A stretch of DNA of 64,000 nt, taken from assembly GCA_019096065.1 (NCBI GenBank), contig JAGUCH010000007.1:3618501-3682500 (forward strand), read 5' to 3'. This document shows, piece after piece, positions 3,001-30,300 of this stretch. Each line of letters begins with the position of its first letter. Positions within the stretch are counted from its first letter, which is position 1. Made by a program: the position numbers and the translations under genes. The notes beneath the pieces are model-generated. The model saw only the letters and a list, made by a program, of their open reading frames with translations. It was not told the DNA's origin and did not search any database. The stretch comes from Paracyclopina nana. Lineage: Eukaryota; Arthropoda; Copepoda; Cyclopoida; Cyclopettidae.

Positions 3001-6000
3001 TGCCTTTTTGGAGAAAAGCCTCAAATTCAAGGCCAGCTTCAGCCCTGAAGCCAAGTCTGGTCTTTATTTCATTGGTGAGAAGAAGAGGAGGGATCTCCAG
3101 GATCAGTCTAGTGGATTTGAGTTTCTTCAAGCAGACTCCAAGAACGACTGGGCCAAATCAGCCAAGTTCCAGCTTCTGTTAAAATGGGCTAGTCTTGTGG
3201 GAGCTCACTACGGTCTTGAAATTGAGAATTTGTCCACCTCATTTTCTGATGGAAGAGCACTGTGCTTTTTGGTGCACCATTACTACCCCGAATTTTTGCC
3301 CAGATCCGAGATCCATTTACAGACCACTCAGCATCAGATCCAGAAGCAAAATCTTGACTCATCCCTGAACAATTCTTTTGGTAAAGGAATGACCTACTCT
3401 TATGGTCAAAATGGAGAGCATCTCAAGTTTTTGGCCAATGAGAAGGAAAATTTCAAGATCTTGCACATGAAGGTAATTTTTTGGGCATTTCTTGCATTTC
3501 TTCATTTTTGTGACACTTGAGTCTGCTTTTATAGGTTCAAGAGTTGGGAGGAGTTCCAATGCTGATTCGCAGCACTGAAATGTCCAATACGATTCCCGAC
3601 CAGAAAGTGACAGCCACGTTCTTGACTTATTTGGCCGCAAGATTGTTGGACTTGTCTGTGGAGATGCAAGCAGCCCGGACGATTCAGTTTGCATGGAAGA
3701 AATTCATCAGTGCCAAAAGAGAGGCTCAACTCAAGGTGAAATATCAATGTTTTTAACCCACTCTTCTGTGACTCGATACAACTTTCTAGTTTTATTTGAA
3801 TAAATGTCTGCTTCTTTGACTGTTGATTTGAAAAAGATTCTCTCTTTGATTTTGTAGGTGGAAATCAGGGCAGCAACCATCATACAAAACAAAGTGAGGA
3901 TCTTTTTGAGAAAAGTTCGGATTCAAAAGTATCAAAAAGCTGCGCTCACCCTTCAAGCTAATTTTCGAGGATTTTTGGCCAGGAAAAGGGCCCAAGAGAT
4001 GCGGCTTCAGATTAAGTACGAAAACCACTTGAAGGCCACTGTTTTCATCCAAAAGTGCATCCGAGGCTTTTTGGCCAGAAAGGCATACATGCAGCAAAAA
4101 GAGGCTGCCTTGACTATCCAAAAAGTTTGGAGAGGATTCATTGCTCGAAAGCATTTTCAATCAACTCTAGCTGGGATTATTCTCGTCCAATCTTTGGTGC
4201 GCCAAAAGCTGGCCCAGAAGCAGTTCAAGCGCTTGTTGAAATCCAGATGCGAGGCTGCCACCAAAATCCAGACTTATTTTAGAAGGCATTTGGCAGCTCA
4301 GAAAATAAAAAAACTCAGGCAAGAAAAGGCTGCTGTGGTGTTGCAAAAACATTGGAAAGGCAAGGTGGCTGCCATGCGATACCAAAAGTTGAGGACAAGT
4401 GTGATTTCTTTGCAGTCACACATCAGAAGATTGCTCGCCGTGAAAGCCTACAGGCAGAAAATCGAGTCCAGGTCCAAAGCTGCCATACTGATTCAAAGCC
4501 ATTTCAGGCGATATCAAGCCACGAAGCATGTGGAGTACTTGAAAAGGTGCCGAGCTGCAACAATGATCCAAAAGACGTTCAAGGCTTACATTGTGAGGAA
4601 AAACTACGTGAACTATCTTCAGAAGGTTGTCAAGGTTCAATCCTTGGTGAAAATGCACTTGGCAAGAACTAAATATGTCAAGACACTCGAAGCTGTCATT
4701 GTCATTCAGAAAAACTTTCGGATGGTTCAAGCTCAAAACCTTTTATTGGAACTGCGAGCTGAACGCGAAGCCGAGGCACAAAATGCTGCAGTGATGATTC
4801 AAAAAGCGTGGAAAATGTATGCACAACGTCGAGCATACATCACAATCAAGCAGAGTGTGATCGTTTTGCAGTCTTTTGTCAGGATGACTATTGCAAGAAA
4901 GAAGCATCAAGCCATTGTTTCACTAAGGCACGAATCTGCAATCATCATTCAAAAGAACTTTCGCCAATATCTTGCTTTCAAGCAGTTGACAAGCCTAAGA
5001 AGAGAAATGGCTGCCATCAACATCCAGAAAAATTGGAAGGCGTATTTGGCTCAAAAAAGCTACCAAGACACTCGAAGCAAAATCATCAAGGTCCAATCTT
5101 TGGTGAGGAAATGGAGAGCAAGGAAAAATTATGTGCAAGCTGTGGAGCAAAGAATCAATGCTGCCATCGTCTTGCAAAGCTACCTTCGTAGACGAATGGC
5201 AAGGAAACAGCTGGAATTCCTGAAGAAAACCAAAGCTGCCACCATGATCCAAAAGCACTATAAGGGCTATGTGAAAAGAAGCCAATTTATGAAGGTGAAA
5301 AAGGGCTTCACTCAACTCCAAGCCTTGGTTAGGATGAGAGTGGCCAAAGTCAAATACGCTCAAATTTGCAGATTGCGTCAAGATTCTGCTGTGATGATTC
5401 AGAAGCACTTCAGAGGATACCTGGCTCGTTCGCAAGCTCAAAAGTTGAGGGAGGAAAAGTCGTCAATTATTTTGCAGAAGTATTGGAGAGGTTACGTGCA
5501 AAGATCTCATTATGAGCTAATGAGGAAAAGCACCATATGCATTCAATCATTTGCACGCATGTGCATTGCAAGGCGAAATTACCTTGAAATGCTTGAAAAG
5601 AGGGAAGAATCTGCTGTCATCGTACAATCTGTGGCCAAAATGTTCCTGCAAAGAAGAAAATATGCAAGAGCTCGGAAGGCTGCTGTAACCATTCAAAAAA
5701 CTGTGAGAATGCATCAAGCAAAAGCTCTAGCAAATCAACTTCGCATTGAGAGGGAACACCTGAGAAATCAAGCCTCCATCACTATTCAAAGCCATTTCAG
5801 AAGGTATTTGGCTATGAAGCTTTTGCAACAGATGAAGGTGGAACACCAAGCAGCCTTGACTATCCAAAAAATGTGGAAAGGCTACTGGCAATGTCGCAAT
5901 TATAACACAAAGCGTTCTGCTGCTATTTGCATCCAAAAGAATGTGAGAATGTGGCAAGCCCAAAAGCTGAAAACTGAATTGGCACGAAAGAGGGCTGATA

Positions 6001-8987
6001 TGAGAAATGCGGCGGCTGTCATCATTCAATCTCACCTGAGAAGGCACTTGGCTCAAAATGTGCTCAAACAGTTGAAACTGCAACATAGTGCTGCAATTAT
6101 GATTCAGAAGACTTGGAAAGGCTTTTTGCAGCGAAGGCAGTTTGTGCTTTTGAAATGCGCAGTAGTGAAGCTGCAGTCTCAAACTAGGAGGATTTTGGCG
6201 CAAAAGATGTATCGAAGCATGTTGACACTCAGGAACACTTCTGCCATTACCATACAGAAAAATTTCAAAAGGCTCCTTGCTCAAAACAAACTTGCGTTGC
6301 TCAAGAAAGAGAAGGCAGCGACAATCCTACAAAAGCATTGGAAAGCTCATAGAGCCAGGCAGCAGTATTATGAGCATCGCCTTCAAATCATCAAAGTTCA
6401 GGCTCAAGTACGTCAATGGCTCGCTCGTAAACGATATGTGAACTTGCTGGAAGAGAGAAATTTTGCTGCCATTCGCATCCAGTCACATTTCAGAAGACAC
6501 ATGGCCCAAAAGGAATTGGAGAGACTGAAGCAACACAAAGCGGCTGTCATAATTCAAAAGCATTACAAGAGTCTACTCCAACGGAGACGTTATAAGAAAA
6601 CTATCGCCAGCGTTGTCAAAGTTCAGTCCATTGTGAGAAGGAATCTTGCAATGAAGAAATTGCAACAAACCATCCAGATTCGCAATGAGTCTGCTGCGAT
6701 GATCCAAAAAGTTGCCCGAGGGTTTCTTGCCAGATGCTCGGCAAAAAGGCTCAAAAAAGAAAAAGCTGCTATTTGCTTGCAAAAGAACTGGAGAGCTCAT
6801 GCTCAAAGGTCGCATTATCTGTTGTTGAGGAACAGTGCCATTTTGATTCAATCTGTTGTGCGAATGAGGATTGCCAAGAAGAGATATCAAGAGCAACTAG
6901 CAAGGAGAGATGGATCAGCTACATTGATTCAAGCCACTGCGAGAGGATTTTTGCAAAGGACCAAATTTGCCAAGATGCTTAAGGCTGCAACTTGCTTGCA
7001 AAAGAACTGGAGAGCTCGTGCTCAAAGGTCGCATTATCTGTTGATGAGGAGCAGTGCCACTTTGATTCAATCTGTCGTGCGAATGAGGATTGCCAAGAAA
7101 AGATATCAAGAGCAACTAGCAAAGAGAGAAAGGTCAGCTACTCTACTTCAAGCCACTGTGAGAGGATTTTTGCAAAGGACCAAGTATGTCAAGATGATCA
7201 AGGCTACTGTGTTAATTCAAAAAATCTTCAGAATGCACCTTGCCCAAAAACTTGCTTGTGAGTTGAGGGTGCAGAAAGAAATTGAGCGGAATCAAGCTGC
7301 AGTGACAATTCAAGCCAACTTTAGACGGTTCTTGGCCCAAAAGGAATTGATAAGACTGAAGCTTAGAAATGAAAATGCTGCCATTTGCTTGCAAAAGAAC
7401 TGGAGAGCTCATGCTCAAAGGTCGCATTATCTGTTGGTGAGAAACAGTGCCATTTTGATTCAATCCGTCGTGCGAATGAGGATTGCCAAGAAAAGATATC
7501 AAGAGCAACTAGTAAAGAGAGAAAGGTCAGCTACTCTACTTCAAGCCACAGTGAGAGGATTTTTGCAGAGGACCAAGTATGTCAAGATGATCAAGGCAAC
7601 TGTGGTAATTCAAAAAATCTTCAGAATGCACCTTGCCCAAAAACTTGCTTGTGAGTTGAGGGTGCAGAAAGAAATTGAACGCAATCAAGCAGCTGTGACA
7701 ATTCAAGCCAACTTCAGACGGTTCTTGGCCCAAAAGGAATTGATAAGACTGAAGAGGGAAAACCACGCTGCGGTCACAGTACAAAGAAGTTGGAAAGGAT
7801 TTATCCAAAGGCGAGAATACTTGAGAATAATTCAAGCTGCTATCACAATACAGAAAAATGTGCGCATGGTTCAAGCTCAAAAATGTCTTTGTGAGCTCAG
7901 GAAGCAGATGAGCATACTGGAAAATCATGCTGCAATCCAAATTCAATGCTGCTTTCGAAGGTATCTTGCCCAGAGAGTACTGAAGCAGCTGAAGAAAGAA
8001 AAGGCCCAATTTGAACTTCATCAGCACCAATCTGCAGCTCTGATTCAAGCCACTTTCAAAATGTACCAGGCCAAGCAATTGTTGAAGCAAATGAAGGCAA
8101 GAAAAGCTGAAATCCTTGCAGCTCAGCAGAAAGAATTGGCCAAAAAGCAAGCCAAGGCTGCATTCATTTTGCAGCATGCTTTTAAAGGTTGGCTAGTGCA
8201 AATTGCATACAGAAGGCAGCAAAGAGCAGCCACTTTGATCAAAGCAGCTTGGAAAGGCTACAAGCTTAGAATGGCTATGAAGAAAGCTGCCATTGCCAAA
8301 AGGTTGGCAGAGGTGCAAAAGAAAGTCTCGGATGCCAACAAAAATGCTACTGAGGAGCAGAAACTTTGCAATAGGACAGCCTTTGCCTTGGACTACCTTT
8401 TCGACTACAAGGACATGGCTATGCTTATTGTGGCTCTTCACCATTTGGATGTGTCGCTGCGATATTCGACCAATTGCTGCAGCAGAATGTTTGAGAACGA
8501 CTCGAGAGCCATTTACAACCTCATGGATTTAATGGATGGCCTCAATCGATCTGTGCCTCATATCGAGGTCATGACCATCATTCTGGACATTTTGATCAGC
8601 TTGGCAGAATTCCACGAGACGAGGCCCAAATTGGCTGAAATCGGGGTTGTCTTTGACTCTGTATTGACTGCATGGAACAAAGGTGACAAGAACGCTGAGC
8701 TTTTTGGCAAATGCTGCAGCCTCTTTTGGAGGCTGGCCGCTGAACCTTGCGCCCTGGATTACCTGAAAGATGACAAGATTTTCAAGAAGCTCTCCGAGTT
8801 TGAGGCCGTTCAAAATCGGAAGAAAAAGACTCCTAGCTCTACCTCGTTGTTGACAAGCAAAGCCATCAAGCCAAAAGTGAAGAAATTGAGTACAAAACAT
8901 GGATGCCAATTGACGGACAGCATTGTCCGTTTTCACTCTGACCCACACGTGGCCATTGGCAGCCTCATGAAAAGACTCCGCAAGTAA
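1..8987 (+). CDS. ASPM: ASPM / abnormal spindle protein, 5' end outside window
   Basis: Spindle-pole and microtubule-minus-end protein that binds calmodulin through IQ motifs. The reading frame is open from base 1, so the N-terminal ASH region lies outside the window. Exon model: 1-2840, 2893-3472, 3535-3735, 3858-8987, with gt-ag introns of 52, 62 and 122 bp in matching phase. The visible part is about 2,900 residues. First comes an acidic, low-complexity N-terminal region with repeated TYVKSP-like motifs. Two calponin-homology regions follow: the first at about 2400-2960, with DLKCGVRLCRIMEIL and the ASPM-typical NGHMEKTLALLWHL across the exon join; the second at about 3170-3720. From about 3690 to 8330 there is an uninterrupted IQ array of about 60 motifs (estimated from array length and 23-residue spacing, not counted one by one). 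A helical, ARM-like C-terminus ends the protein. AATAAA lies at 9028-9033. The family assignment is firm. The array is longer than I recall for insect Asp. Confidence 0.95.
6765..7756 (+). repeat. recent tandem duplication inside the ASPM IQ array
   Basis: A block of IQ motifs starting with CLQKNWRAHAQRSHYLL occurs three times, at about 6765-6980 (short copy), 6981-7372 and 7375-7756. The last two copies are about 385 bp each and nearly identical in DNA and protein, including the stretch ending FLAQKELIRLK. Neighbouring IQ motifs are far more diverged, so these copies are the youngest part of the array. Confidence 0.9.
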
Positions 8988-15300: not shown

Positions 15301-18300
15301 ACGAATTGACAACATAATCCACCTAAATCCCCCAAGCACAGCCAAATGGGCTGCTCAATATGCAAAGCCCAGATTGGAATCAGAGTTTTTTCGCACTATA
15401 GTAGTTTTGCCAAGGGTGCAGAGAAAATAATCCCCCTTTGTCTCTCCACTTAGATTTTGACTGCGAACCACACTGGCCACCAATAGATGTATATAATAGT
15501 GGACCCCAAAAAGGAATGAATACCCGGTCTCAAATTGAGCCATATTTTATGCCACAGCGTTTTGTAAAGGTACTCTTTTGTCGAGAATGATCATTTGAGA
15601 AAAAACACCGTGGGCGTAATTAGGGGAGAAAATGAGTTATGGCCTTGGCTCTTTTTATGGCAACGATGACACTAAAAGGCAAGAAGAAAATGGAAGACAA
15701 ATTGATTTTTTTTAAACTTGCTAAAATGTAGAGTTCTTTTTGAGTGTGTAACATCAGCTGCGGAGAGGTAAAAAATGTTATTGCAAAACCTGATCTCAAA
15801 TATGTTGACAAGATCAAGGACAAAGTTGACTGCATGCTTTGCAGTCAAGCAGTATTATGTGTCCATTTCAAGATCAAAAGATGGGAGATGCTTCTTGTTT
15901 CATTGTTCACAACTACTACTTTTGGACTTTCAAACTTTCAGCCAACAGAAGAAGATATCCATCTTCAAGTCAAGTCATACTAGTCACATCAAATTAAGCC
16001 TTGAATGTAAACTCAAAAAAAGCAAAAAAGAGTGACAGCTGAATAAACCAGACAAAAAAACCTAAAATGCTTTGCTAGTGATCAATGTGAACATTTTTAC
16101 CAGAAATATGTGCTAAAAAATTGCAATTTTTAAAGTGATCAAAATCTGCATTTTTTAAAGTCTTTAGGCCTCTCAGCCCAGTGTGCATTTTAATTTATAA
16201 AAAGGATTTCTGCTAACTTTCCAATCTGTGCATTGAACACAGATTTGATAAAAGGTAAAAGTGGCTGGTGCAACTGCAGACAAATGAGCGCTCAACCCCA
16301 ATAAAATAGAGTGATGATAATCATAAAAATGACCACCATCTGTTGTGAACCGAGCCAGATCAGATAAACAGGCAAGACTTACAATTTGATTCCTGTAGTA
16401 GCAATTTTGATCACCAGCCATCAATTCATTATTGAGCAGCTGGTCCTCTTCTTCGTCGCAATTTTCCTTTCTGCAATACTCTCTTGGCACTCGAGAGCAT
16501 CGAGACTCCGGCTTGGTCTTCACCACTGTTCGTTTTTCAATTTTGCATCGCATTGCAGGTACTTTGGTGCACTCTGAGGAGGATGACCTGAAAAAAGTTG
16601 AAATTGCTTCAAATTCCAGTAAGGATCATCATTACATTTATGGCATTTCGGATGATTAGAGCTTGGAATAATGGTGATCCAAGATCTCAAAAAGCCCGGA
16701 GCAACAAGGCAGGAAATTGATGATATTGCAGAAAAAATCCAAGCTGAAAAAATCCTTAGATTCGCAGCACTCTTTGTCTTTTGGCAATATCAGTTTTTGA
16801 CTATATCAGCTCAAGTGATCAACGGACCGTGGATTACGAATTTTTAATGAGTAAGTATTCATGTCTGTTTTCCTGCAAAAAATAGGCTTTTTAGCGAGCT
16901 TAAAAAAGGTAGGCAAGTTAGAAATTGAAGAGCTCTCTGGAGCTGAGGAGTTGGAAACTAGGAGATCTCTTCAAATAAGTCAAGCCAAAATAACCAGGAG
17001 ACTTCCGTCAAAAAAAGCGCCTCAAAATTGTATTTCGCATTAGTTTACCCAGGATGTGGATTCACAAAAAATTCACTGAGGCCAAGAATGGTGGAGACTT
17101 TCAGGATCTAAAATGAAGGTGGTTTTCAAACCTATGCTTCCTTGTTCAGGCGCGTTTTAAGTTATACAACCTGGACTATTAAACATAATGATAAGTGTAG
17201 CAGGATCCCGAGCCTGCGCACCTGCGCTCTCGCCTCCTTCTCGTGCGGTAGCACTACAATTGTACGGCAGTAAATAAACGACTATGCGCGAGCAAACAGC
17301 TCGACGACACATATCCTTCCAACTAAGATGGAGTCTTATAAGCTATAAGTTAGTAAGGTGTAACGCGTAGGTCTCAGAGTGTTCGAACCCCTACAAATTG
17401 GCGCGGTGCTGAGGACAACTCTTCGAGTACCGCAAAACACGCGACACCTTCGCTCCCGCCTCCATTCCTGGGAAGTCGTTGTTTCCGACAACGACCAAAT
17501 AAGACCGGGAAGAGGAAGCAATATTAGTGCGTTCCGGCTGAAAGTATGCCACGAACATCAACCTCACCCTCGCTGAGGCTACGGTGGCTGAGGCTACCAA
17601 AAGCTCACGAGAGGGAGCAACTTGGGCAGCAGATCCCGCCACCCGCGTCGTCCCCCGAGACACCGAGTGCGGATGCTGTGCCCCCTGGGTCCAAACACCA
17701 GGACCGTTTCCGCGTCGAGGCCGGGGTGCCCTTGAGAAGAGGCCGTCTACCCCGGGCCACCGGAAGCGCGCCACATAGTCGGCGCTGCATCACTCTGCAG
17801 AAGGATGTAACAAGCCACTAGTAATAATCGGTCACTGTACACGCATCGCGAATGCCAATAAACTAAATGTGACTAAGTTGATCAATCTATCGCTCACTCA
17901 TGCTCCCAACTTAATTCGAATACCGCGCAGCGAACTGCCGGTCGGCCACGCTCACGCACGATCATTGGCCCGAGGCCACGGCCTCCGGCCGCCCGGGCGG
18001 GTCACAACCCCCCTCAGGGCAGAGACCCAAATCACTGCAATCCAAGGCACTAAATGCTGCTCTGCTCCAATGCATTCCACGCGTAATTGCCGTGGTGAAT
18101 AGAGAAGCATTGGCCATCCTGCATCAAAGCAAGAGAGCAGTACAAGCAAGCCATAAACTGGCCCCTTTATGGGGGCTGCATGTGGCGCTTCACATGTGCA
18201 GAGCAATTAGCGGATTGTCTGTCAACGCACTAAAAGCCATTATTCTCAAATGCGCAGCATTCGCTCCAAACAACCTTCTTGTTAACGATCGTAAAACATC

Positions 18301-21300
18301 TCCTATCGGGGACCGGATCGCACAAACAATTCTAAATTGCTACGCTAAAACGATCCCCGAGGGTCGGAGAATTACAACGGATGCTGCGGGTGAGCGGCCG
18401 CTGCATAGGGGACAAGAGAGGCTATAAAGATCGAGTACCAGGGGAAAAGTCACAGTTCTTTGGATTTGCTCCAAGTTGCTACACCCTGCTCTCGCGCTTT
18501 TTACGCCATTCTTGGTAATTATTCCTCTATTTGCTACGCTAGGGCTTTGAAATCAACCTCTTTCACTTATGCAGCCGCCGCTCGCTCATCATGCCTGTCG
18601 AACGATCTCCTCCTCACACCTCCGCAAACGAGGAGCTCGGGACGTCCCCAGACAGCCACGAGTTGGGGCCACACCCCACCGGGCTCCAACAACGCTTCGA
18701 AGCCGATTTAAGCACCCTCGGGGCCCACGGGGCCGCCGCCGGGAGCCGTCCTGGCCTAGACCCGCTTGGGTTTCCGCGGAACTACGGATCGGCCGCTGAG
18801 GCCGCCACTGGGACCAGGCCGCGCCCCGGGCCCGGGGCTAGGGCGGATCCGCCAAACCAACCAACTGAGACCGACCCGGCTGGCGCCAACCCCGACACCG
18901 AGGGGCTGTCGCAGTCGATGCTGCTGCAATTCCTGAAGTCCATGGAGGCCCAGCGGCAGGCGGATGCACAGGCCCGCAAACAGGAGGCCGAGCTACGGCT
19001 CCTGGAGATCAACACCCGCCGTCTCGAGGCTGAAAACGCCGCTGCTCATTCCGGGCGCAAGCGCAAACTCGAAAAGTTCGAGGACACGGAAGCTGACAAG
19101 TGGCTCACCTTCCGCCTTCATGTGGAGGCCACCTTCTTGGGGTCCAAGGACACCGAGGCCACCAAGAAACTGGAGGTCAAGCATGCCATGGTGGGCGCGG
19201 CACTTCGTACTATCAATGAGGTAGATCTGTTCCTGACGGACGAAAGCTTCACCCTCAAGCACCTGCTCGACGCCTACGAGAGGTTCTTCGTCACCGCTAC
19301 GTCGTCCCAGGTGGCCCGTATAGCCCTCGAAACGGCCCATCAGCGCTCTGATGAAGGGATTCCCCAATGGCACGCTAGACTGCGCAGCATCTTCGTCCGC
19401 GCTAAGCCTGAGCTGGCCAAGGAGGTCGAGACCTACCCCGACTTGACCCGCTTGTTTGTGACCAAGCTTCACCTCAAGGATGTGGTCATGGGCATCGCCG
19501 GGCACAAATTCACCACCATGGCCGACGCCTTGGAAGCTGCCAGTCAAGCTGAATGTTGGTTGTCGTTGGGGCAAGGTAAAGGCCGCATCGCCGCCATGAT
19601 TCCCGGAGCCGGCGACGACTCCACGGTCGTATGCTTCTACTGCGAGCGTAAGGGCCACCGCAAGAGCGAATGCAGGACCCTCGACTCCGACAAGCGTAAT
19701 GGCCGCTACGACCCCAAGATCGACAAGTGGGCTCACGCAGCTTCCCTCAACAAGGACCAGGCGGCTCGAGGACAGAGTTCCCGAGGTCGAGGACGAAGGC
19801 GCACCTCCGACCAGAAAAGGACCTCCGATCGGCAAGGCTCGTCGGGCAAGACCAACAAAAGGTCTCGAGTCAATGAAATCTACGAGGCCAAGCCCAAGGA
19901 AGAACCCGAATCCGAGGCCTCGGATGATGCGGCACCGGGAAACGACTCGACCCGGTTGTAGAGAGCTCCAGCCGGGTCCCCTCACCTTCCTCCATACTAG
20001 CAGCTCTCGACCACATCGCCAGTCATCAACGATTCATGGCCCAAGTCCCGATCCGCATCGGCAAGATCAAAGCCAGGGCCCTGGTCGACAGCGGCAACAG
20101 CTGGCGCACGTGCATCTCCGAGAATTTTGCCTGCCGACTTGGAGTTCTTCCACACGGTCTCCGGCCCATGCTCGACATGCCCGCGGTGGGCACCGCCCAC
20201 GCGCAGCAACGCCTCCAGGTCCTGGGGGAGTTACGGCAGCCACTGCGAGTGCAGCTGGGTAATCACCCTCACTCCTTCTCTATCCGACCCGCAGTGGTAC
20301 GGAACCTCTCCATGGATTTCAACTTGTCAGGGCCATTCTTGAGCCACCACCGCATCGACCAGCTCCACTCCCAAGGGACCCTGCGCGTGCACGGGAAGCA
20401 GATCCCGCTGGTGGGCGCCCTCCAACCCGCTGAGGATCAGGAAGAGTACGAAATCCGGATTCTGCGGCCCGTCAATATTCCAGCCCGCACTGTCACCCTG
20501 GTGGCCGCCGTAGCCCCTCACTGGCCCCACGGGTCCACGCGGGCCGCCGCCCTCGAGGCAGGGCCCCAGTTTGCCGCGCAGACGCAGCTGGCGCCCTGGA
20601 ACATTGCATTAGTCCAGCCGCGGGCCGGCGGCAGCCTGGCAGTTGGGGTGCTGAACCCCCTGGATCACCCGCTCCGCCTTAAGGGCGGAGTGATCTACGG
20701 CACCCTCCGTGTCTACGAAGAAAACGAGGGCCCCAGCGGAACCGAGGCTACTCCCTCGGTGCACGCGGTGCGCACGCCGGTCACCACCCGCAGTACCAGC
20801 CGGAAGCAGTCGGAGTCCGATGCCAAGCGCCGTTACGAGCAAGCCAACCTTATCATCGACACCTTCAAGCTGAACGAGAACGACATGCTCAAAGATAACC
20901 CCAAGCGGCTGGCTCAAGCCGCCACCCTGCTCGCGGCCCACGTCGGAGCCTTTTCATTTGACGGCCGCACGGGGCAGACCACACTGGTCGAGCATGCCAT
21001 AGACCTCAAGCCTGGGACAAAGCCCATCAACATCCGTCGGCGACCCATCAATCCGAACCTCGAGGCGTCCCTGAAGGAACAGATCCAGAAGTGGTTGGAT
21101 GAAGAAGTCATCACGCCCATCACTTCGCCGTGGTCCGCGCCTCTTGTTCCCGTCCGCAAGAAGGATGGCACGCTGCGATGGTGCGTAGATTATAGGGAAC
21201 TCAACAAGGCCACTGTAGTCGACTCACACCCCATCGGAGACGTCAGGGACAACCTCAGCCGACTGGCCCGCTCCACAGTGTTTTCAACGTTGGACGCGGT

Positions 21301-24300
21301 GGGTGCCTTTAACGTGGTTCCCATTCGGGCAGAGGACGTGGAGAAGACCACCTTTTCCACAGGGGACGGCTCATACGCCTTCCTCAAGATGCCCTTCGGC
21401 CTCACCAATGCGCCCAAGACATACAGCCGCCTCAATAGGATGGTTCTGGAGGGCATATCATGGGACGTTGCCCTGCCATACCTCAACGATTGCTTAGTCC
21501 ACTCAACCGACTTTGAGTCCCACCTCCGCAACTTGCGCCTGGTGCTGCAGGCCCACGAGAAAGCAGGACTTCTGCTGAAGCCGTCCAAATGTCACCTGTT
21601 CCAATCCAGAGTGACATACTTGGGGCATGTTGTCACTCCTCAGGGCCTCGAGGTCATGCCAGCCTACATTGACCTCATCCGTGAATGGCCCTTGCCTAAC
21701 ACCAGGAAGCAGCTGCGTATCTTCCTTGGCAAGGCCAATTATTACCGATCCTTCATTGAGAAGTACCAACATGTCGCGGCGCCCCTGTCGGACAAGCTCT
21801 CCAAGGACGACGGCACCAGCGACAACCATGTTTTTCAACCCAGCCCGGAGTTCCGGGCCGCTTTCGACGAGCTCAAGAAGAGGCTGACCTCTGCGCCTGT
21901 ACTGGCCTATCCGGACTTCGCCTCGCCTAACCCCTTCATCCTGGATACGGATTTCTCACAAGAAAACAGGGCTGTTGGGGGGGTCCTTTCCCAAGTCCAA
22001 GATCGCAAGGAAAGAGTCATCTTATACGGTGCCAAGAAGCTGAACGCCGCTCAAAGCAATTATTCCGCTAATCAGGGCGAGCTGGTGGCCGTAATAATTT
22101 TCATCAAGCAATTCAAGTATTACCTGCAACACCGCCGTTTCATCCTGCGCACTGACCATCGGGCCCTCCTCTGGATCCGCTCCATGGAAGCGCCCACGGG
22201 AATGCTGGGCCGATGGCTCGACACCATCTCCAACTACGACTTCGAAGTGGTACACCGGGCAGGAGTGAAGCACGGCAACGCCGATCCCCTCAGCCGAGCG
22301 CCCCACCTGGCACAGCGGGGTGACCATATCAGCTCAGACGTCTCTGATGATGACTTTTTCCGGGTGGCTAATCTCAAGCTGATTCCCACGAAGCCGGAAG
22401 CGTGGGCTGCGGCCCAGGAGGAGGACGACGACCTGGTCCTTCTGAGACAGCTAGTCCGACTGAAACAATCGCCTTCGCAGGAGAACCTCAACGCCGCATC
22501 ACCTCGAGGTCGCGTGCTACTGGAACTACTAAGTTCCATGACCATGGATCGGCAAGGTGCTCTTCGCTTGCTGGATCGGAAGAGGCAAACCTCGCGACTG
22601 GTGGTGCCCCGCCAGTGGCAGGAAGCCAGCCTCCGCCACGTACACGACACCATGGGACACCAAGGGCGCGACTCCGTGGTCCACAGGGCAGCTCAGCACT
22701 TCTACTTCCCAGGCATGACGCGTCTGGCCGATGAAGTCGTCAAGTCCTGCCTCCTTTGCCAGCGGTCCAAGCCGGGCCAGAAAAACCAATTGCACACCCT
22801 CAAATCGCATTACGCGGGCTACCCGTTCCAGATCTTGAGCCTCGACTACGTAGGGCCGTTCCAGCCTTCGTCGAACCGTCACCGCTACTTGTTCACTGCT
22901 AAGTGCGTCTTCATCAAATGGATCGAAGCTTTCCCGTGCGGTTCCAATGATGCTGAAACAGCCGTGCGGTTTTTGACGACCGAAATCATCCCTAGATTTG
23001 GCCTTCCAGAGAGACTACACACCCGATCAAGGGACTCATTTCACGGCCCATCTCATGCGGGAAGTATGCGCGGCCCTTGGGATACAAGCCACCACTACTC
23101 CTTCATACAACCCGCGCAGCAACCCGGTCGAACGGGCGCATCGGGATCTCAACGAGCTCATCAGGAAGATGGTCAAGGGTCGATACGCGGACTGGGCCGA
23201 GGTCGTTCCCTTCGCCCTCTTCGTCCTCCGTACCACCAAAAACCGCTCCACGGGCATGGCACCATATGAAATGGTTTTCGGTCGCCAACCGTCGACCAAC
23301 CTGGACTTGATCTTTGGGGACCCGCAGCCGGCTGTAGCAAAGGCCACGCAAGCAGGCCGATTCGCCAAGCAACTGAAGGAGCGAATACAACTGGCGCATG
23401 AATGGGCACGGAAAAACATCTCCAACTCGATCGAGCGACAACGACGGGCCTACCACATGGACAAGCGTGCGTTCGTAGTGGGACAGAAAGTGTGGCTGTT
23501 CACCCCGAAGGTTATTCCACGCATCTCCAAGAAGCTACAAACCTTCTGGACGGGACCTTGGACAATTGAAAAACAAGTGAACGAGCTCACTTACGAAATA
23601 GCACCAGACCCGTCTTGGGCTCGAGCGCGAAACCAGGTCGTCTCGGTAGACCGCCTTAAGTTGTACATCCCACCTGACCAAGATCAAGGCAACGTGTCTA
23701 CTGCACCACCGGCCGAGGATTTGGATCTGTCCATGTTAGGCGACGAATCCGCCGAATTCCTCGCGGACCCACAACATGAAGTCGCGGCGGAGCCCGCTAA
23801 TGACCTCGCTGTGCCTTATGAATATGCGGTGGCCCCGACGGACAGAGAATATGGGTTCCCAGAAGCCCGAGATGACCCCATCCCGGCCTTCAACGACGAC
23901 CCCACGATACCTGAGTACGACTGCACCCGGTACCAATCCAATCCGGATGAACGCCCATCCACACCGGATAATGAGTCTCCACAGAATACTCCGCAACTGC
24001 CAAGCCCTCCTACAGATGATGATGAGCCCAGGCGCACTAGCACAGTGGTGAAAAGGAAACGACGATCAAATCCAGAAATGTTGCAGGCTGACACCGAGCG
24101 ATTCTTAGGTGGACCAGAGGCGGTCACCAAACGGTCTAGATCCAAAACACGCAGCGGCGACAGGAGAAGCACGACCGACGAGGATACGTTGCCACTGCAG
24201 CATTTGCAGGACAACCCGCCAACCGTGCATCAAGCAACTAGATATCTGCTCCCACCGCTAGAACCGCGGCCACTACCTCTTCGACCGACCATTCCGTCAC

Positions 24301-27300
24301 CAATCAAAGAGGCCTCTCACTCAACATCATCATCGGCACCGTCAGCAGCTACCGCAGAAACGTGCGACGACGTGTTCCAGGACTAATACAATATTGCTCC
24401 CTCATGACAAAGTTTGGGGGGGTGCACACACATTTATGCCACATTCATGCCATATTTCATATCACATATGTATCATAACCGCATTATTAACACATGCTCA
24501 TGCTATATAAACCATGACATTCGGGCGCAAACACTAACAAGACAAACAAGCGTATAATAATCATTTACCTTCTCTCTTGCAGTCTGAGTTAATAACCAAC
24601 TACCTCCTAGCGAAGGGAATTTATAAAGTGTACACTAGCTCACCACTACGTACTACGTCCACCATGCATCCAGGTCATTGTTTGTGCAGTCCCACGCTGA
24701 TGCTCCTCGTCTTCTTTGGATACAGCTACTGGATCCTCCTCAACGAGGTGGCCCAAGCAGCAGCCTTCCCGGGGCAGTCACCACGACCAGCCGATTTGTA
24801 CACCCCAGACGCCAAGGTGACCTCGTTCACCACCTATGACTGCGCGCATCCAGATGCCATGCACGAAGCTATCGACCTGAGCCAGCCTGAACTCTGTGAA
24901 GATATTCGCAGCTCTTACCAGTCGCCGGTTAATATCACGATTCAGGTACTGCAGACGGCCTCGACCCTCTCCGTTAAGGCATACCGGTGCCGAGTGCACA
25001 TATCGCGGGAAGTTACTCGCTGTGGATATGATAGCATCAGTTATGGGAGTCAAATGACGGACGTAAATAGGCCCTACCTGGTAACGCCGCAAGCCTGCCG
25101 AGACGCCGCCGAGAAACGCTTCCTGCTGGTGGAAAATAAGAAGGTCCAAGTCACGCTCAATACCCCCGTGTCCCTGTCGTACTTCTCCAAGGGTGGGCTC
25201 GATAAGGATCACAAGTGCACGACGACTACTTTCATCAGTGGTGGCGTGACATTCTACAAATTGTATGAAACCACCACGATCCATGCGTTGGTGGAGCCGA
25301 TCTACGGGAAGCTAAACACGGCCAATGGGCGGGTGGTCTTCTCCAACCACCTTACAGCCAACTTCCAGGACTTGATCGTACAGGACGACGCCGAAGGCAC
25401 CATTGTGTGGCCTAAGCGCAAGACCCCCCGCTGCGAAGATGAACTGAGCGAAGTATACAAGGGGCCGGCCGTTCTGTACCCTCACCGCAACTCGTCCAGC
25501 TTCAGCGGCAACGCGGGTCACCTAGGAGACCTGCTCCTCCTCGCCCACGAAGAAGAATCGCGGTTCGCGGGATTCGTCCTCAAGGGCGTGCAGTCCATGT
25601 GCCAGCGGCGGCTGTTCACCACTCAGCTCCGCGACTTCGCCGTCTTGATCGTGGGACCCGGGGATGGACCCCTCCAAGCCAAGTACCTTCACCCGGAGGA
25701 CATGGGACGGTGCGAATATACAGACACAGCTGGCATTCGTGCATTCGCAGCATGCGCTGCATATCCAGGACCGGTTCAAGTTCCTCCAGGAACTTATCTG
25801 CAAGAACGAACGATCGATCCTGCACTCCAAGCTCAAGAGTATGGCTTCCGGCTCCTCATCATACGCCACCCTTGATAGCCACGGACCAGGCCATCTAGTC
25901 ACCCGTGCCGGGGCCGTAGCCTATGTTACCTCCTGCTACCCGGTGCAAGCCGTCACCAGGTCTATTGCGAACTGCACGCAGGAGATTCCCGTGCTGGTGA
26001 ACAACGAGACACGATTCGCGGACCCTCTCTCCTTTGTGCTGACTGACCGGCCCAGCGTGGTCCCATGCGATTCCATCACCCCGATTAAATGGAAGATCCA
26101 CAATCAGTGGATGTGTGCCACCCCCAGATCCACGCCTGTATTGCCCCTATGCAACTCAACCCCATGTCGGACGCGGCTCCCGGAGCGGACATTACGACAT
26201 CAGTCGAGGACTAGGGGGTGGAGTGTTCTCGGCGGAACAGCGGGCTAACCATATCCTCTACCTCCACTTGTTTAGCAGTCGGGAGGCCGTGGTGAACACT
26301 ATCACTAGTAACGTGCTCCACAACTCGCTTATCACGGGCAGCAGGTCGACTACGCTATGGACGCAGGAAGACATTGATCAAATGGTGGATCATGTCGGCA
26401 GCGCAATTATTCCTTTCTTCAGCTCAGTAGGGAAGTATTATTCCTACTTCACAGGGACTCTCATCACCATCGGCCTGATCAAGTTGATCCTCGGAGCCGT
26501 CATCCGGATGATCATCCTGTACCGACAGCGCGGATTGGGTTGGTGGATGTTCTTGGCTCTGTGGCATACGGCCTTCCTTATGGTCGAGATGCCGTGGCGG
26601 ATGCTTACCAACCTTGGGCACGACCAGATTCTATTCCCTGGCGGGGACGACGATGACGAGGATCAACCCCCAACACGCGGCAGGCGCCGACCTCGAAACC
26701 GGGAAGGACCCGAGGCGTACCCCCTGGCCGCCCTCAGCGACGGAGACGAAGAGGATGACGACGAGGCACCCCCTAAGTACGGGGCCGCAGAACCGGGAGA
26801 AACCGATGGACCCCGCCGGTCTGGATTCCGCCAACGCATGAAGGAGGCTCTATTTAAAGAACAAGACGGCCTCTACCGGAACCTGCAGGCACAGGTCGAC
26901 GCGCTGGCGAGGCAGAACGAGACTATGCACAACTACATTATGGCTGTGCTCCCCTCGGCTCCGGCGCCCAATACTGTGGCCTCCGCGACCTCGACGCCCC
27001 TGAAGTCACCGATGGAAGGAGGAGCGACCACCGGTCCACCTATCTCCCCTGTACCTCCGGCCACGGGATCCCCCCGACATAGGGTGCCAGCATTGCGCCG
27101 TGAGGACACGGCCACGCTTCAATAGGGGGAAATTGTAGCAGGATCCCGAGCCTGCGCACCTGCGCTCTCGCCTCCTTCTCGTGCGGTAGCACTACAATTG
27201 TACGGCAGTAAATAAACGACTATGCGCGAGCAAACAGCTCGACGACACATATCCTTCCAACTAAGATGGAGTCTTATAAGCTATAAGTTAGTAAGGTGTA

Positions 27301-30300
27301 ACGCGTAGGTCTCAGAGTGTTCGAACCCCTACATAAGATATCAAGATTTAACCGGTTAGAGTTGAAGATACAAATTGAAGAATCACAATTTCACTTTCCC
27401 AGCTTTCTAGATCTAGCAATCTGGCATTTAAGATCTAAAAACATGACTTTTAAGATGTAATTGATTCAAGACAAGATAGTTTGCACATCCTCTCTCAATA
27501 TGAATATCGCAGGAAATCATCACTTAATCTCGAAAATCATGATCAAGTTATGCAACTCCCTTATGTTTTCCCTGTTTTAACACCATCTTATGAAAAAAAT
27601 CCTGCGTAACTAATTAGCTTTTTTTGACACTCTGCTCCAGAAAGAGGCTCCCAAATTGTTACACGGTTTTGACACAACATCATAATTGGAATCTTTGCAG
27701 GCACATAAACATCCTAAGCAGAGCTACAAATTAGTAGTAGTTTAAAAAAGATAAGGTAGAAGTCGAAATGGTTATTGAGCTCATCTTAGCTATTGGAATC
27801 ACTGGAAACCTTTTGGTGACAACCAGTTGCACCCTCATCATCTTATCGCATGTGAAACATAAACAACCAGGCATGCAAACACTTGTTGACTACTTTGCTT
27901 ACAATGGTTTGATCAGCATGCTTGCACACGAAGCTTCCAGAGGAATGGCAATGGTATTTATTTTGTTGGGGGTAACCACTAGCAACATAACAGCCATGGT
28001 AATTGCATTAGCCACCTCAATAGCGAACAGTATGAAAGTACTGCACCTCATTGGCTACATGGCTGTAAGGTATCTCTATGTTTTTCATCCTAACAAATTA
28101 GAAACTTCGATGGATGATAAAAAAGTTATCAAGGCATCTACATGTGGAGCTTTACTTTTGTCACTGATCATTGTTGGACAAGAGCAAACATTTTTTGTGC
28201 CTATTCAGGACTCATTCTTTGGTGTTTTGCTATCAGCTAACGCTTCAACCCATACTTATAAAATGTTCAAATTAAGGAGATTCATAAGCTTTCTGTCTAC
28301 AAGTATATTGATTGCCATTCAATTCAAGCTTTGGAATCACAACAGAAAATTCAAAGAGAGGTTCAAGCATCAAACAGACAATGAAATTGAGTGGATGAGC
28401 TTCAATTTGAAGTTGATAAGGCAATATTTACTCCCCATTCTTTTGATTGGAGGTGCATATGGCTACATTTATTTCATTCGAATGTCCAATCATTTATTGG
28501 CGATTTGCTTAAGTTTGTTATACTCAGCAACTTTGAACTTTGTGCTGATCTCATTCATTGCTAAATACTCCTTATTAAAAGAACATGCAATGAAAATACT
28601 TCAATCACTAAGAGGAAAAATTGTTTTTTATGCAACCTTTCTCAAAAGATCCCCAATTGTATATGATGTCAATGAATAAATACATGTACAAACATATGTA
28701 TGTCCAAGGGATGCATGATTCAGTTCAATCGTAAGATCTAGATGATTCAACTCTTACTTATGCAGTAAAAAGCGCGTTAACTTAATGTCCTGTTCATGTA
28801 CGCCCCAAACTCCTTAGGAAAATGCACGAAAAACACCTCAAGGAAAGGAGAAAAATTGTCTTATGACAAGCGCCAGCTGATACTAAAAAAATCAGATCGA
28901 CTTTAAGCCAACTTGAAAGTAAACAAATCTAATTTCGGCTATGAAGTGCTCCATATTTTAGTCCTTTTGAGAAAAATCAATCGTTAAATGTCGTCTTTTA
29001 TCAAAGAAGTATGATGACAGATAGTTTGTTACGAAATATGCTAAAAACCATGAGACAAAACAGCAATAATTGCCAATAAAAACGCTGCTCGGCCTCAAGC
29101 TGAACTTGTAGAGCGGCAGTTAGCAACAGATTCACTTTTCCTTATGACAATTTTTTCCATACCTTGAGGCATTCTTAATACATGAACAGGGCATTAGACA
29201 AGGCAATTATATTTTTCATCCTCAGGTATTTGACACTGATATGGATGATACAATAGTTGTCAAGGCATTTACATTTGAAGCTTTACTTTTTTCACTGATC
29301 ATTGCTGGAATAGAGCAGACGTTTTTTATATTATATTTAAATATTTACTCCCTGTTCTTTTGTTAGTAGTTGCATATGGCTACATTTTTTTCATTCGAAT
29401 GTCTAATCATTTATTGGTGATTTGCTTAAATTCGTTATACTCGGCAACTTTGAATTTAGTCAGGATCTCATTCATTGCTAAGTACTCCTTATTAAAAGAG
29501 CAAGTAATGAAAATACTTCAATCACTAAGAGGAAAAATTGTTTTTAATGTAACCTTTCTCAAAAGATCCCCAATTGAATATGAAGTCAATGAATAAATAT
29601 ATGTGCCCAAGGGTTGCATGATTCAGTCAATTGTAAATTGTAAAATTATTTATTGCTAAATTCTACTTGTTAAAAGTTACTGAAAATCCTTCGATGACTA
29701 AGAAAAATTGGTGTCGATTGCAACCATTTTCAAAGGATTCCCTACATTATACGAAGTTAATTAATGATAATAAACAACATTAACTATCATCAAACACCAT
29801 TTTGCACTTAAAATCCTTGGCAGCGCAGCATCAAAATTGTTCGATTATATTGAGCGTCTTTGCCTAAAAGTTTGGGTTCGAGTGGCGGATATTGGAAAGA
29901 AGATTAGCTTTCCGTCAAATTTCACTGCTTCTTTGTTTTCACTTCCGGTCGAGCGGAAATGTAGCAACTTTCGCGGGCAAATACTTAATTGGTGCAGCAG
30001 TAGAAAAGGTAACACTTACAGACTCGTCGTGTTTTCTGGGCATTTTTCCACCATTTCCACTTGACATTTGGGGTGATCTTCTTCCATCGTCTGCTGGATT
30101 TGCTCCGTGATGCATTCTGTCGAGAATTTGGTGGAGCAAACGGTTCTTCTGCCTCTGATGCACTTTTGCCTCGTTTCACCCACAGTCGGAGTCGGCCTCA
30201 CATCCAGGACAATGTTGTCCAGACTGAGGTCATTGTTGTAGCCAAATGGTGATTTGGCAATGTTGAACTTTCCATCAGGACACACCCGAACTCTGACCTG

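What the first reader, a model, noticed from the sequence alone, without database searches (positions are those of the whole stretch)
19937..20008. Complete -1 frameshift module with predicted H-type pseudoknot at the gag-pol junction
The heptamer G GGA AAC is in the gag register, followed by a 5-nt spacer, a 10-bp stem (19949-19958 with 19969-19978) and a 7-bp loop-downstream helix (19961-19967 with 20002-20008). The gag stop codon is placed inside the loop, and the -1 frame is open into protease. All three parts fit together by base counting, which is unlikely by chance. Many Ty3/gypsy elements use other solutions, so a retrovirus-style pseudoknot here is notable.
Basis: partly seen in the sequence, partly recalled or inferred. 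Interest (0 to 1): 0.8.

Follow-up and report, generated by a model that had tools for sequence, protein, structure and literature searches.

The report
Ribosomal frameshift signal of a retroelement
A virus-like mobile element in an animal genome, probably an arthropod's, carries a textbook signal that should make ribosomes slip back one base so that its enzymes are made; the signal looks real, but signals of this kind are already known from retroviruses and from the mammalian gene PEG10.

Summary
It sits in a recent (identical LTRs, 4-bp TSD) Ty3/gypsy element, 17196-27333, with an env-like gene. None of 3000 shuffles gave a comparable pseudoknot. Relatives in the same genome support a frameshift signal: pol codons 1-6 (stem 2 5' arm, stem 1 3' arm) are the only run of invariant third bases in 329 well-filled codons (about 1e-7). 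The six-pair core of stem 2 is kept in the window's clade and, with A-U changed to G-C, in three other lineages. Against: a large sister lineage (B) has lost the stem 2 3' arm; covariation is not above shuffles once B is included. A distant family (35% identity) uses A AAA AAC, 7 nt and an 8-bp hairpin with the gag stop in its loop. So this is a -1 frameshift signal with a probable pseudoknot, close in layout to PEG10 and CAEV: a new member of a known kind. Less expected is the chuvirus-like fusion glycoprotein gene inside a Ty3/gypsy element. Frameshifting itself is inferred, not shown.

The parts
17196..17395 (+). 5' LTR (200 bp, TGTAGC...CCTACA)
   Evidence: direct repeat; edges read; identical to 27134-27333
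27134..27333 (+). 3' LTR
17192..17195 (.). target-site duplication TAAG, 5' copy (3' copy 27334-27337)
18543..19961 (+). gag open frame (472 aa stop to stop), one CCHC zinc knuckle, weak PNMA match below the cut-off; stop TAG 19959-19961
19928..23269 (+). pol in the -1 frame (1113 aa: protease-like region with an LVDSGN motif (recalled; no Pfam protease match), RT, RNase H, integrase zinc-binding domain, weak integrase core)
19937..19943 (+). slippery heptamer G GGA AAC in gag register
   Evidence: intact in 37 of 40 near copies, the window's included
19944..19948 (+). 5-nt spacer
19949..19958 (+). stem 1, 5' arm
19959..19960 (+). loop 1, first two bases of the gag stop
19961..19967 (+). stem 2, 5' arm
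19969..19978 (+). stem 1, 3' arm
19979..20001 (+). loop between stem 1 3' arm and stem 2 3' arm (23 nt)
20002..20008 (+). stem 2, 3' arm
   Evidence: lost in lineage B
22977..24386 (+). rest of pol in another frame in this copy (matches to integrase C-terminal families below their cut-offs): the copy is frame-broken here
24538..27125 (+). env-like gene, in three overlapping frames in this copy, each matching Monjiviricetes_fusion (PF24664)

Best explanation
This is the gag-pol -1 programmed ribosomal frameshift signal of an env-bearing Ty3/gypsy retroelement. Ribosomes translating gag reach G GGA AAC with their leading edge against stem 1, whose loop pairs downstream as stem 2 to form an H-type pseudoknot. 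A fraction re-pairs one base back (GGG AAA), passes the UAG lying between the stems in the new frame and makes Gag-Pol; the rest stop and make Gag. Shown: sequence, frames, geometry, conservation. Inferred: that the knot forms, that ribosomes slip, and at what rate. The heptamer and stem 1 are the general core; stem 2 is probably used in the window's clade and some other lineages but is lost or replaced in lineage B.
For: Geometry and register. Across 11 subfamily representatives, pol codons 1-6 (19961-19978) are the only run of 3 or more invariant third bases among 329 codon columns filled by at least 9 of 11 rows, 25 of which are invariant (hypergeometric 1.05e-7). The 42 nt from heptamer to the end of stem 1 are more alike among 16 representatives than any of 249 pol-side or 194 gag-side windows, part of that being double-coded. 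Heptamer exact in 32 of 38 distinct junctions. All 40 near copies keep all S1 and S2 pairs. S2 pair 4 is A-U in the window's clade and G-C in L088, L102 and L143; the first two lie outside that clade in the tree (clade support 83/90), L143 was not placed. Without lineage B, 94.7% of cells pair (22 of 500 shuffles reach this) and the covariation score is reached by 8 of 500. S2 duplex of the window's subfamily against base-shuffled downstream sequence: p 0.005 and 0.004. A family at 35% identity has the same design with another heptamer and a hairpin. Long pol frames persist: 9 matches lie in frames of 1485 aa and 5 in 1493 aa, of 126.
Against: Lineage B (13 of 33 rows, 11 of 29 distinct, in A1) breaks 3 of 7 canonical S2 pairs and at least one S1 pair, yet has many copies, some with long pol frames; its alternative S2 (5 bp) is no better than shuffled (p 0.39, 0.46) and S2 of L091 is weak too (p 0.11). 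With B included covariation does not exceed shuffles (315 of 500 reach it); without B the counts of pairs with a double change (343 of 500) and of pair types (431 of 500) do not either. The S2 3' arm is not more conserved than pol at large (129 of 285 windows equal or better), and the S1 3' and S2 5' arms taken alone over all bases are only in the upper tail (22 of 281, 24 of 284). A stricter test on fourfold-degenerate codons had no power: no such column in the knot for 11 rows, one for the clade. Within the near family stem conservation is not significant once two outlier copies are dropped (1 of 34 against 63 of 478 variable columns, p 0.10). Two copies (L088, L147) lack the TAG at this place. 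No expression or reporter data.
Confidence: 0.87

Rival explanations
1. The stimulator is a simple hairpin (stem 1); stem 2 is incidental and the complementarity is a coincidence of coding sequence.
For: Lineage B lacks canonical stem 2 and is abundant; distant family C appears to use a plain 8-bp hairpin; the S2 3' arm is not unusually conserved.
Against: A 7-bp S2 at the right place is unlikely by chance (p 0.004-0.005 for the window's subfamily; 0 of 3000); its core is kept in the window clade and, with A-U changed to G-C, in L088, L102 and L143.
Confidence: 0.2
2. Pol is expressed by internal initiation or re-initiation after the gag stop rather than by frameshifting.
For: An in-frame ATG lies just before the protease-like motif in the window copy.
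Against: That methionine is present in 4 of 12 A/B-type rows of the tree set (window, L055, L058, L091); the others have V, A, L or P. It would not explain a conserved in-register heptamer and structure.
Confidence: 0.03
3. UAG readthrough with a pseudoknot, as in gammaretroviruses.
For: A stop codon beside a pseudoknot.
Against: The gag frame meets another TAG at 19998-20000, 12 sense codons on, and does not enter pol; the stop lies inside the structure, not 5' of it.
Confidence: 0.01
4. A decayed relic: the junction is alike only because the copies are young.
For: LTRs identical; 39 of 40 near copies 95-100% alike over about 300 nt, L048 90%; within-family stem conservation is not significant; this copy is frame-broken in pol and env.
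Against: Subfamilies down to 56-57% protein identity still share the module, with runs of third-base conservation restricted to it.
Confidence: 0.03

Closest known systems
PEG10 (mammalian gene thought to derive from a Ty3/gypsy element) -1 frameshift signal
   Same: G GGA AAC heptamer, 5-nt spacer, pseudoknot, gag-like to pol-like frame (PMC2800197 and PMC4598141, passages read)
   Different: PEG10 is a host gene; its stem lengths were not compared here. This is a multicopy LTR element with an env-like gene.
Lentiviral and betaretroviral GGGAAAC + H-type pseudoknot (CAEV, visna, FIV, SRV-1, MPMV)
   Same: Heptamer and class of structure; in Table 1 of PMC3835772 (passage read; column order worked out from the text) CAEV reads spacer 4, S1 10, S2 7, L1 1, L2 15, L3 0, against 5, 10, 7, 2, 23, 1 here
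   Different: Retroviridae of vertebrates; longer crossing loop here; one sister lineage here without canonical S2.
PNMA3 (Ma3) frameshift signal
   Same: Classical heptamer with classical H-type pseudoknot (PMC5009743, section 12); gag here weakly matches the PNMA profile
   Different: The PNMA match is below Pfam's cut-off (19.9 against 25 bits), so kinship is not shown.
Animal LTR retroelements with pol in the -1 frame
   Same: 28 of 51 surveyed animal retroelements are so arranged, many with classical heptamers (PMC5009743, section 11)
   Different: That passage does not speak of pseudoknots for them; the env-like gene here is Monjiviricetes-like.
Anakin (BEL-Pao element with a chuvirus glycoprotein; PMC7642597, abstract)
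   Same: LTR element with a chuvirus-like glycoprotein within its LTRs
   Different: Anakin is BEL-Pao; the RT here is closest to Ty3 among solved structures.

Membership tests
Canonical -1 frameshift signal | X XXY YYZ heptamer in the upstream gene's register | tested here: met
   G GGA AAC 19937-19943, the only in-register heptamer in gag
Canonical -1 frameshift signal | Downstream frame open at -1 | tested here: met
   19928-23266 open, 31-nt overlap before the gag stop
Canonical -1 frameshift signal | Structure at a suitable spacing | tested here: met
   S1 starts 5 nt after the heptamer, as in PEG10; PMC3835772 typical but lists 4 for CAEV
Canonical -1 frameshift signal | Measured frameshifting | not testable with these tools
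   no reporter or proteomic data
H-type pseudoknot stimulator | Both stems kept by compensating changes | tested here: inconclusive
   one S2 pair with a double change in three lineages; lineage B breaks S2; S1 has one-sided changes only
Ty3/gypsy (Metaviridae) | RT closest to Ty3-group RT | tested here: met
   best solved-structure matches: 4ol8 (Ty3 RT, name recalled; E 4.8e-76) and 7q5b, named Ty3-G Gag-Pol (E 8.4e-76); no tree with other groups was built
Ty3/gypsy (Metaviridae) | Order RT-RNase H-integrase, LTRs, short TSD | tested here: met
Errantivirus (env-bearing insect Ty3/gypsy) | Env likely from baculovirus (PMC12440569, passage) | tested here: not met
   env pieces match PF24664 Monjiviricetes_fusion
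PNMA/PEG10 gag kin | Gag matches the PNMA family above its cut-off | tested here: not met
   19.9 bits against a cut-off of 25

The most novel reading that the evidence does not exclude
One animal genome, probably an arthropod's, holds a natural series of frameshift stimulators in one group of Ty3/gypsy elements: a full pseudoknot (window's clade), a lineage that lost stem 2 and still multiplied (B), and a distant family with another heptamer and a plain hairpin (C), each typically with the gag stop inside the stem-1 loop; lineages A and B also carry a chuvirus-like envelope gene, a capture for which a 2023 survey found no clear evidence in Gypsy elements.
Probability: 0.4. Interest if true: 0.5.

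Novelty: new member of a known kind. Interest (0 to 1): 0.36.

Why it matters
It adds an invertebrate case with comparative support to the known pseudoknot frameshift signals of Ty3/gypsy-type elements, and the related lineages offer natural variants (stem 2 kept, changed on both sides, lost; hairpin only) for asking how retroelements trade one stimulator for another without losing the balance of Gag and Gag-Pol.

Tried and rejected
Near copies (40 fetched, the window's included) are too alike to test pairing. A first within-family count gave p 7e-6 for stem conservation but was inflated by divergent or misaligned copies; with L022 and L048 dropped it is p 0.10, so I do not use it. A first third-base count without a filling rule showed two other runs of six (from codons 223 and 245); they go when columns must be filled by 9 of 11 rows. 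A regex scan matched nothing and was replaced. A first look for chance pseudoknots sampled every seventh base of the element and was replaced. A nematode host was considered and the recalled SL1 leader sought: no exact match; 5 of 6 contig ends read carry TTAGG repeats, so an arthropod is more likely (recalled link). IMG/VR gave no relative. Protein database searches found one gag relative, one env relative and 339 pol relatives, best 120 listed, without DNA context, so they could not serve as junction comparisons. Env exchange between lineages A and B was considered because env is mostly 83-85% alike and the protease region 61-64%, but RT is 88% against one B copy, so nothing special is needed. 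Literature: nine searches answered; the 2003 survey of LTR-element recoding was not read, only the review's account of it. Rows dropped: five of 38 distinct junctions (L046, L047, L050, L098, L100; indels or shifted heptamers) were left out of alignment A1; of the ten loci, L143 and L147 were added to A4, L141 (indel), L142 and L144-L146 (lineage B sequence) and L148-L150 (same as L143 or nearly) were not; A4 leaves out lineage B on purpose. Not every match had its junction fetched.

Full report
What is there. The window copy is an LTR retroelement at 17196-27333 with 200-bp identical LTRs and a 4-bp TAAG duplication. Gag (18543-19958 open) has one CCHC knuckle and a weak, below-cut-off PNMA match; pol in the -1 frame has RT, RNase H and integrase domains in Ty3/gypsy order, and the RT's best solved-structure matches are 4ol8 (E 4.8e-76; Ty3 RT, recalled) and 7q5b, named Ty3-G Gag-Pol. 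Downstream an env-like gene matches PF24664 Monjiviricetes_fusion in three frame pieces. In this copy pol and env are frame-broken; other copies are listed with longer frames. The host genome is 92 Mb in 10 contigs with TTAGG repeats at 5 of the 6 contig ends read; an arthropod is inferred.

The observation. All stated coordinates are right. The only correction is small: the stop codon's last base is the first base of the stem 2 5' arm, so it lies across loop 1 and stem 2, and stem 1 holds one U·G. The pol frame opens at 19928 and gag ends at 19958, so a -1 shift has 31 nt in which to happen; the one in-register heptamer of gag lies there.

Chance. Among 498 slippery-type heptamers on both strands, six have any pseudoknot with S1>=8 and S2>=5 behind them; the module (10+7) and a poly-T site (12+5) both reach 17 pairs. 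None of 3000 dinucleotide shuffles held any such pseudoknot. Energy of the nested fold is not exceptional (z -1.57): the case rests on register, spacing and knot geometry, not on stability.

Relatives. A DNA search scored 40 of 110 candidates, all 93-100% alike; a protease-region protein search gave 126 matches from 119 scored of 289 candidates, down to 35% identity. I fetched 100 junctions: 95 carry the module by an ungapped score, 5 do not (L051, where none was found in the stretch, and the four family C loci L103-L106), giving 38 distinct sequences, 32 with GGGAAAC. All 40 near copies keep every S1 and S2 pair and 37 keep the heptamer, but these copies are young and the within-family contrast with the flanks is not significant once two outliers are removed (p 0.10).

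Selection at RNA level. In 11 subfamily representatives (window's clade, two lineage B, L088, L102) aligned by codon, 25 of 329 columns filled by at least 9 rows have an invariant third base; six of these are pol codons 1-6, which hold the S2 5' arm and S1 3' arm and no longer overlap gag, and this is the only run of three or more (hypergeometric 1e-7). First and second positions of some of these codons do vary, so protein constraint is a poor explanation. A fourfold-degenerate test had no power there. The 42 nt from heptamer to stem 1 end are more alike than any flank window, though 22 of them are double-coded. This is the strongest evidence that the heptamer-stem 1 unit is functional RNA.

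Stem 2. In the window's clade the S2 core (6 pairs) is kept, in L091/L092 with a G·U; pair 7 is absent in 8 of 20 distinct rows of A4. Lineages L088 and L102, which branch outside that clade in a tree built without the knot columns (clade support 83/90, their own place unresolved, L102 on a long branch), and L143 (not in the tree) have G-C in place of A-U at pair 4. Without lineage B the covariation score is reached by 8 of 500 shuffles and the 94.7% of paired cells by 22, while two other measures are not above shuffles; with B none is. Lineage B keeps nine of ten S1 pairs in most rows, but its S2 3' arm reads differently and only four of seven pairs can form; the next best partner gives 5 bp at p about 0.4. 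So the pseudoknot is probable in the window's clade, and B either uses stem 1 alone or another partner.

A second solution. Family C (35% identity) also has pol at -1, with A AAA AAC in gag register, 7 nt, and an 8-bp hairpin whose 4-nt loop holds the gag UAA. Of 18 family C junctions compared with L103 over 65 nt, 9 are identical; L121 differs only outside the unit; L122 and L123 have one stem change; L131 has an insertion in the stem; L126, L127, L129, L130 and L133 have altered heptamers (my reading of the listing). Family D-like copies (L143, L148-L150) keep knot arms but lack the canonical heptamer; at least 10 such copies have only a 104-aa protease-like frame.

Mechanism. The best reading is -1 frameshifting at GGGAAAC stimulated by an H-type pseudoknot, making Gag and Gag-Pol. 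Readthrough fails on frame (a second in-frame TAG at 19998-20000), and re-initiation at the nearby ATG fails on conservation (4 of 12 rows). Frameshifting itself is inferred, not shown.

Against the known. PEG10, thought to derive from Ty3/gypsy, has the same heptamer and spacer and a pseudoknot (PMC2800197 and PMC4598141, passages). CAEV has nearly the same stem lengths (PMC3835772, table passage). Animal LTR elements with pol at -1 are common (PMC5009743, sections 11-12). The listings of two searches joining gypsy elements, pseudoknots and frameshifting showed no title or abstract on this element family, but the library is partial. The env-like gene is the less expected part: a 2023 survey reported abundant Gypsy fragments beside Jingchuvirales glycoproteins in insects but no clear capture by Gypsy elements (PMC10084718, passages); here 95 scored candidates of 526 gave 98 env matches in this genome, the window copy's lying between identical LTRs.

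Verdict. Observation confirmed; interpretation mostly right in mechanism, overstated in rarity, and the pseudoknot's second stem is not universal in the lineage.

Noticed in passing
window 24538-27125: Env-like gene of the element matches Monjiviricetes_fusion (E 5.8e-29 for the first piece), a chuvirus-like glycoprotein inside a Ty3/gypsy element; 98 matches in this genome, many near lineage B pol copies in frames of about 830 aa.
   Followed up: partly
L114:3700-3830, L103-L106, L121-L134: A distant family with A AAA AAC, 7-nt spacer and 8-bp hairpin with the gag stop in the loop; 5 of 18 junctions compared have altered heptamers.
   Followed up: partly
L143, L148, L149, L150: At least 10 short copies with only a 104-aa protease-like frame; those read keep the knot arms but not the canonical heptamer: perhaps a non-autonomous derivative.
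   Followed up: no
L112, L113 (C2:6434400-6438600): Two decayed copies with the changed stem 2 (G-C at pair 4) lie on one strand, about 1.8 kb between their protease-region matches.
   Followed up: partly
window 3858-8981: A 1708-aa open frame rich in IQ calmodulin-binding motifs (likeness to ASPM recalled).
   Followed up: no
L135 (C1:1-3000): One contig end is a CTGGC-type repeat instead of TTAGG.
   Followed up: no
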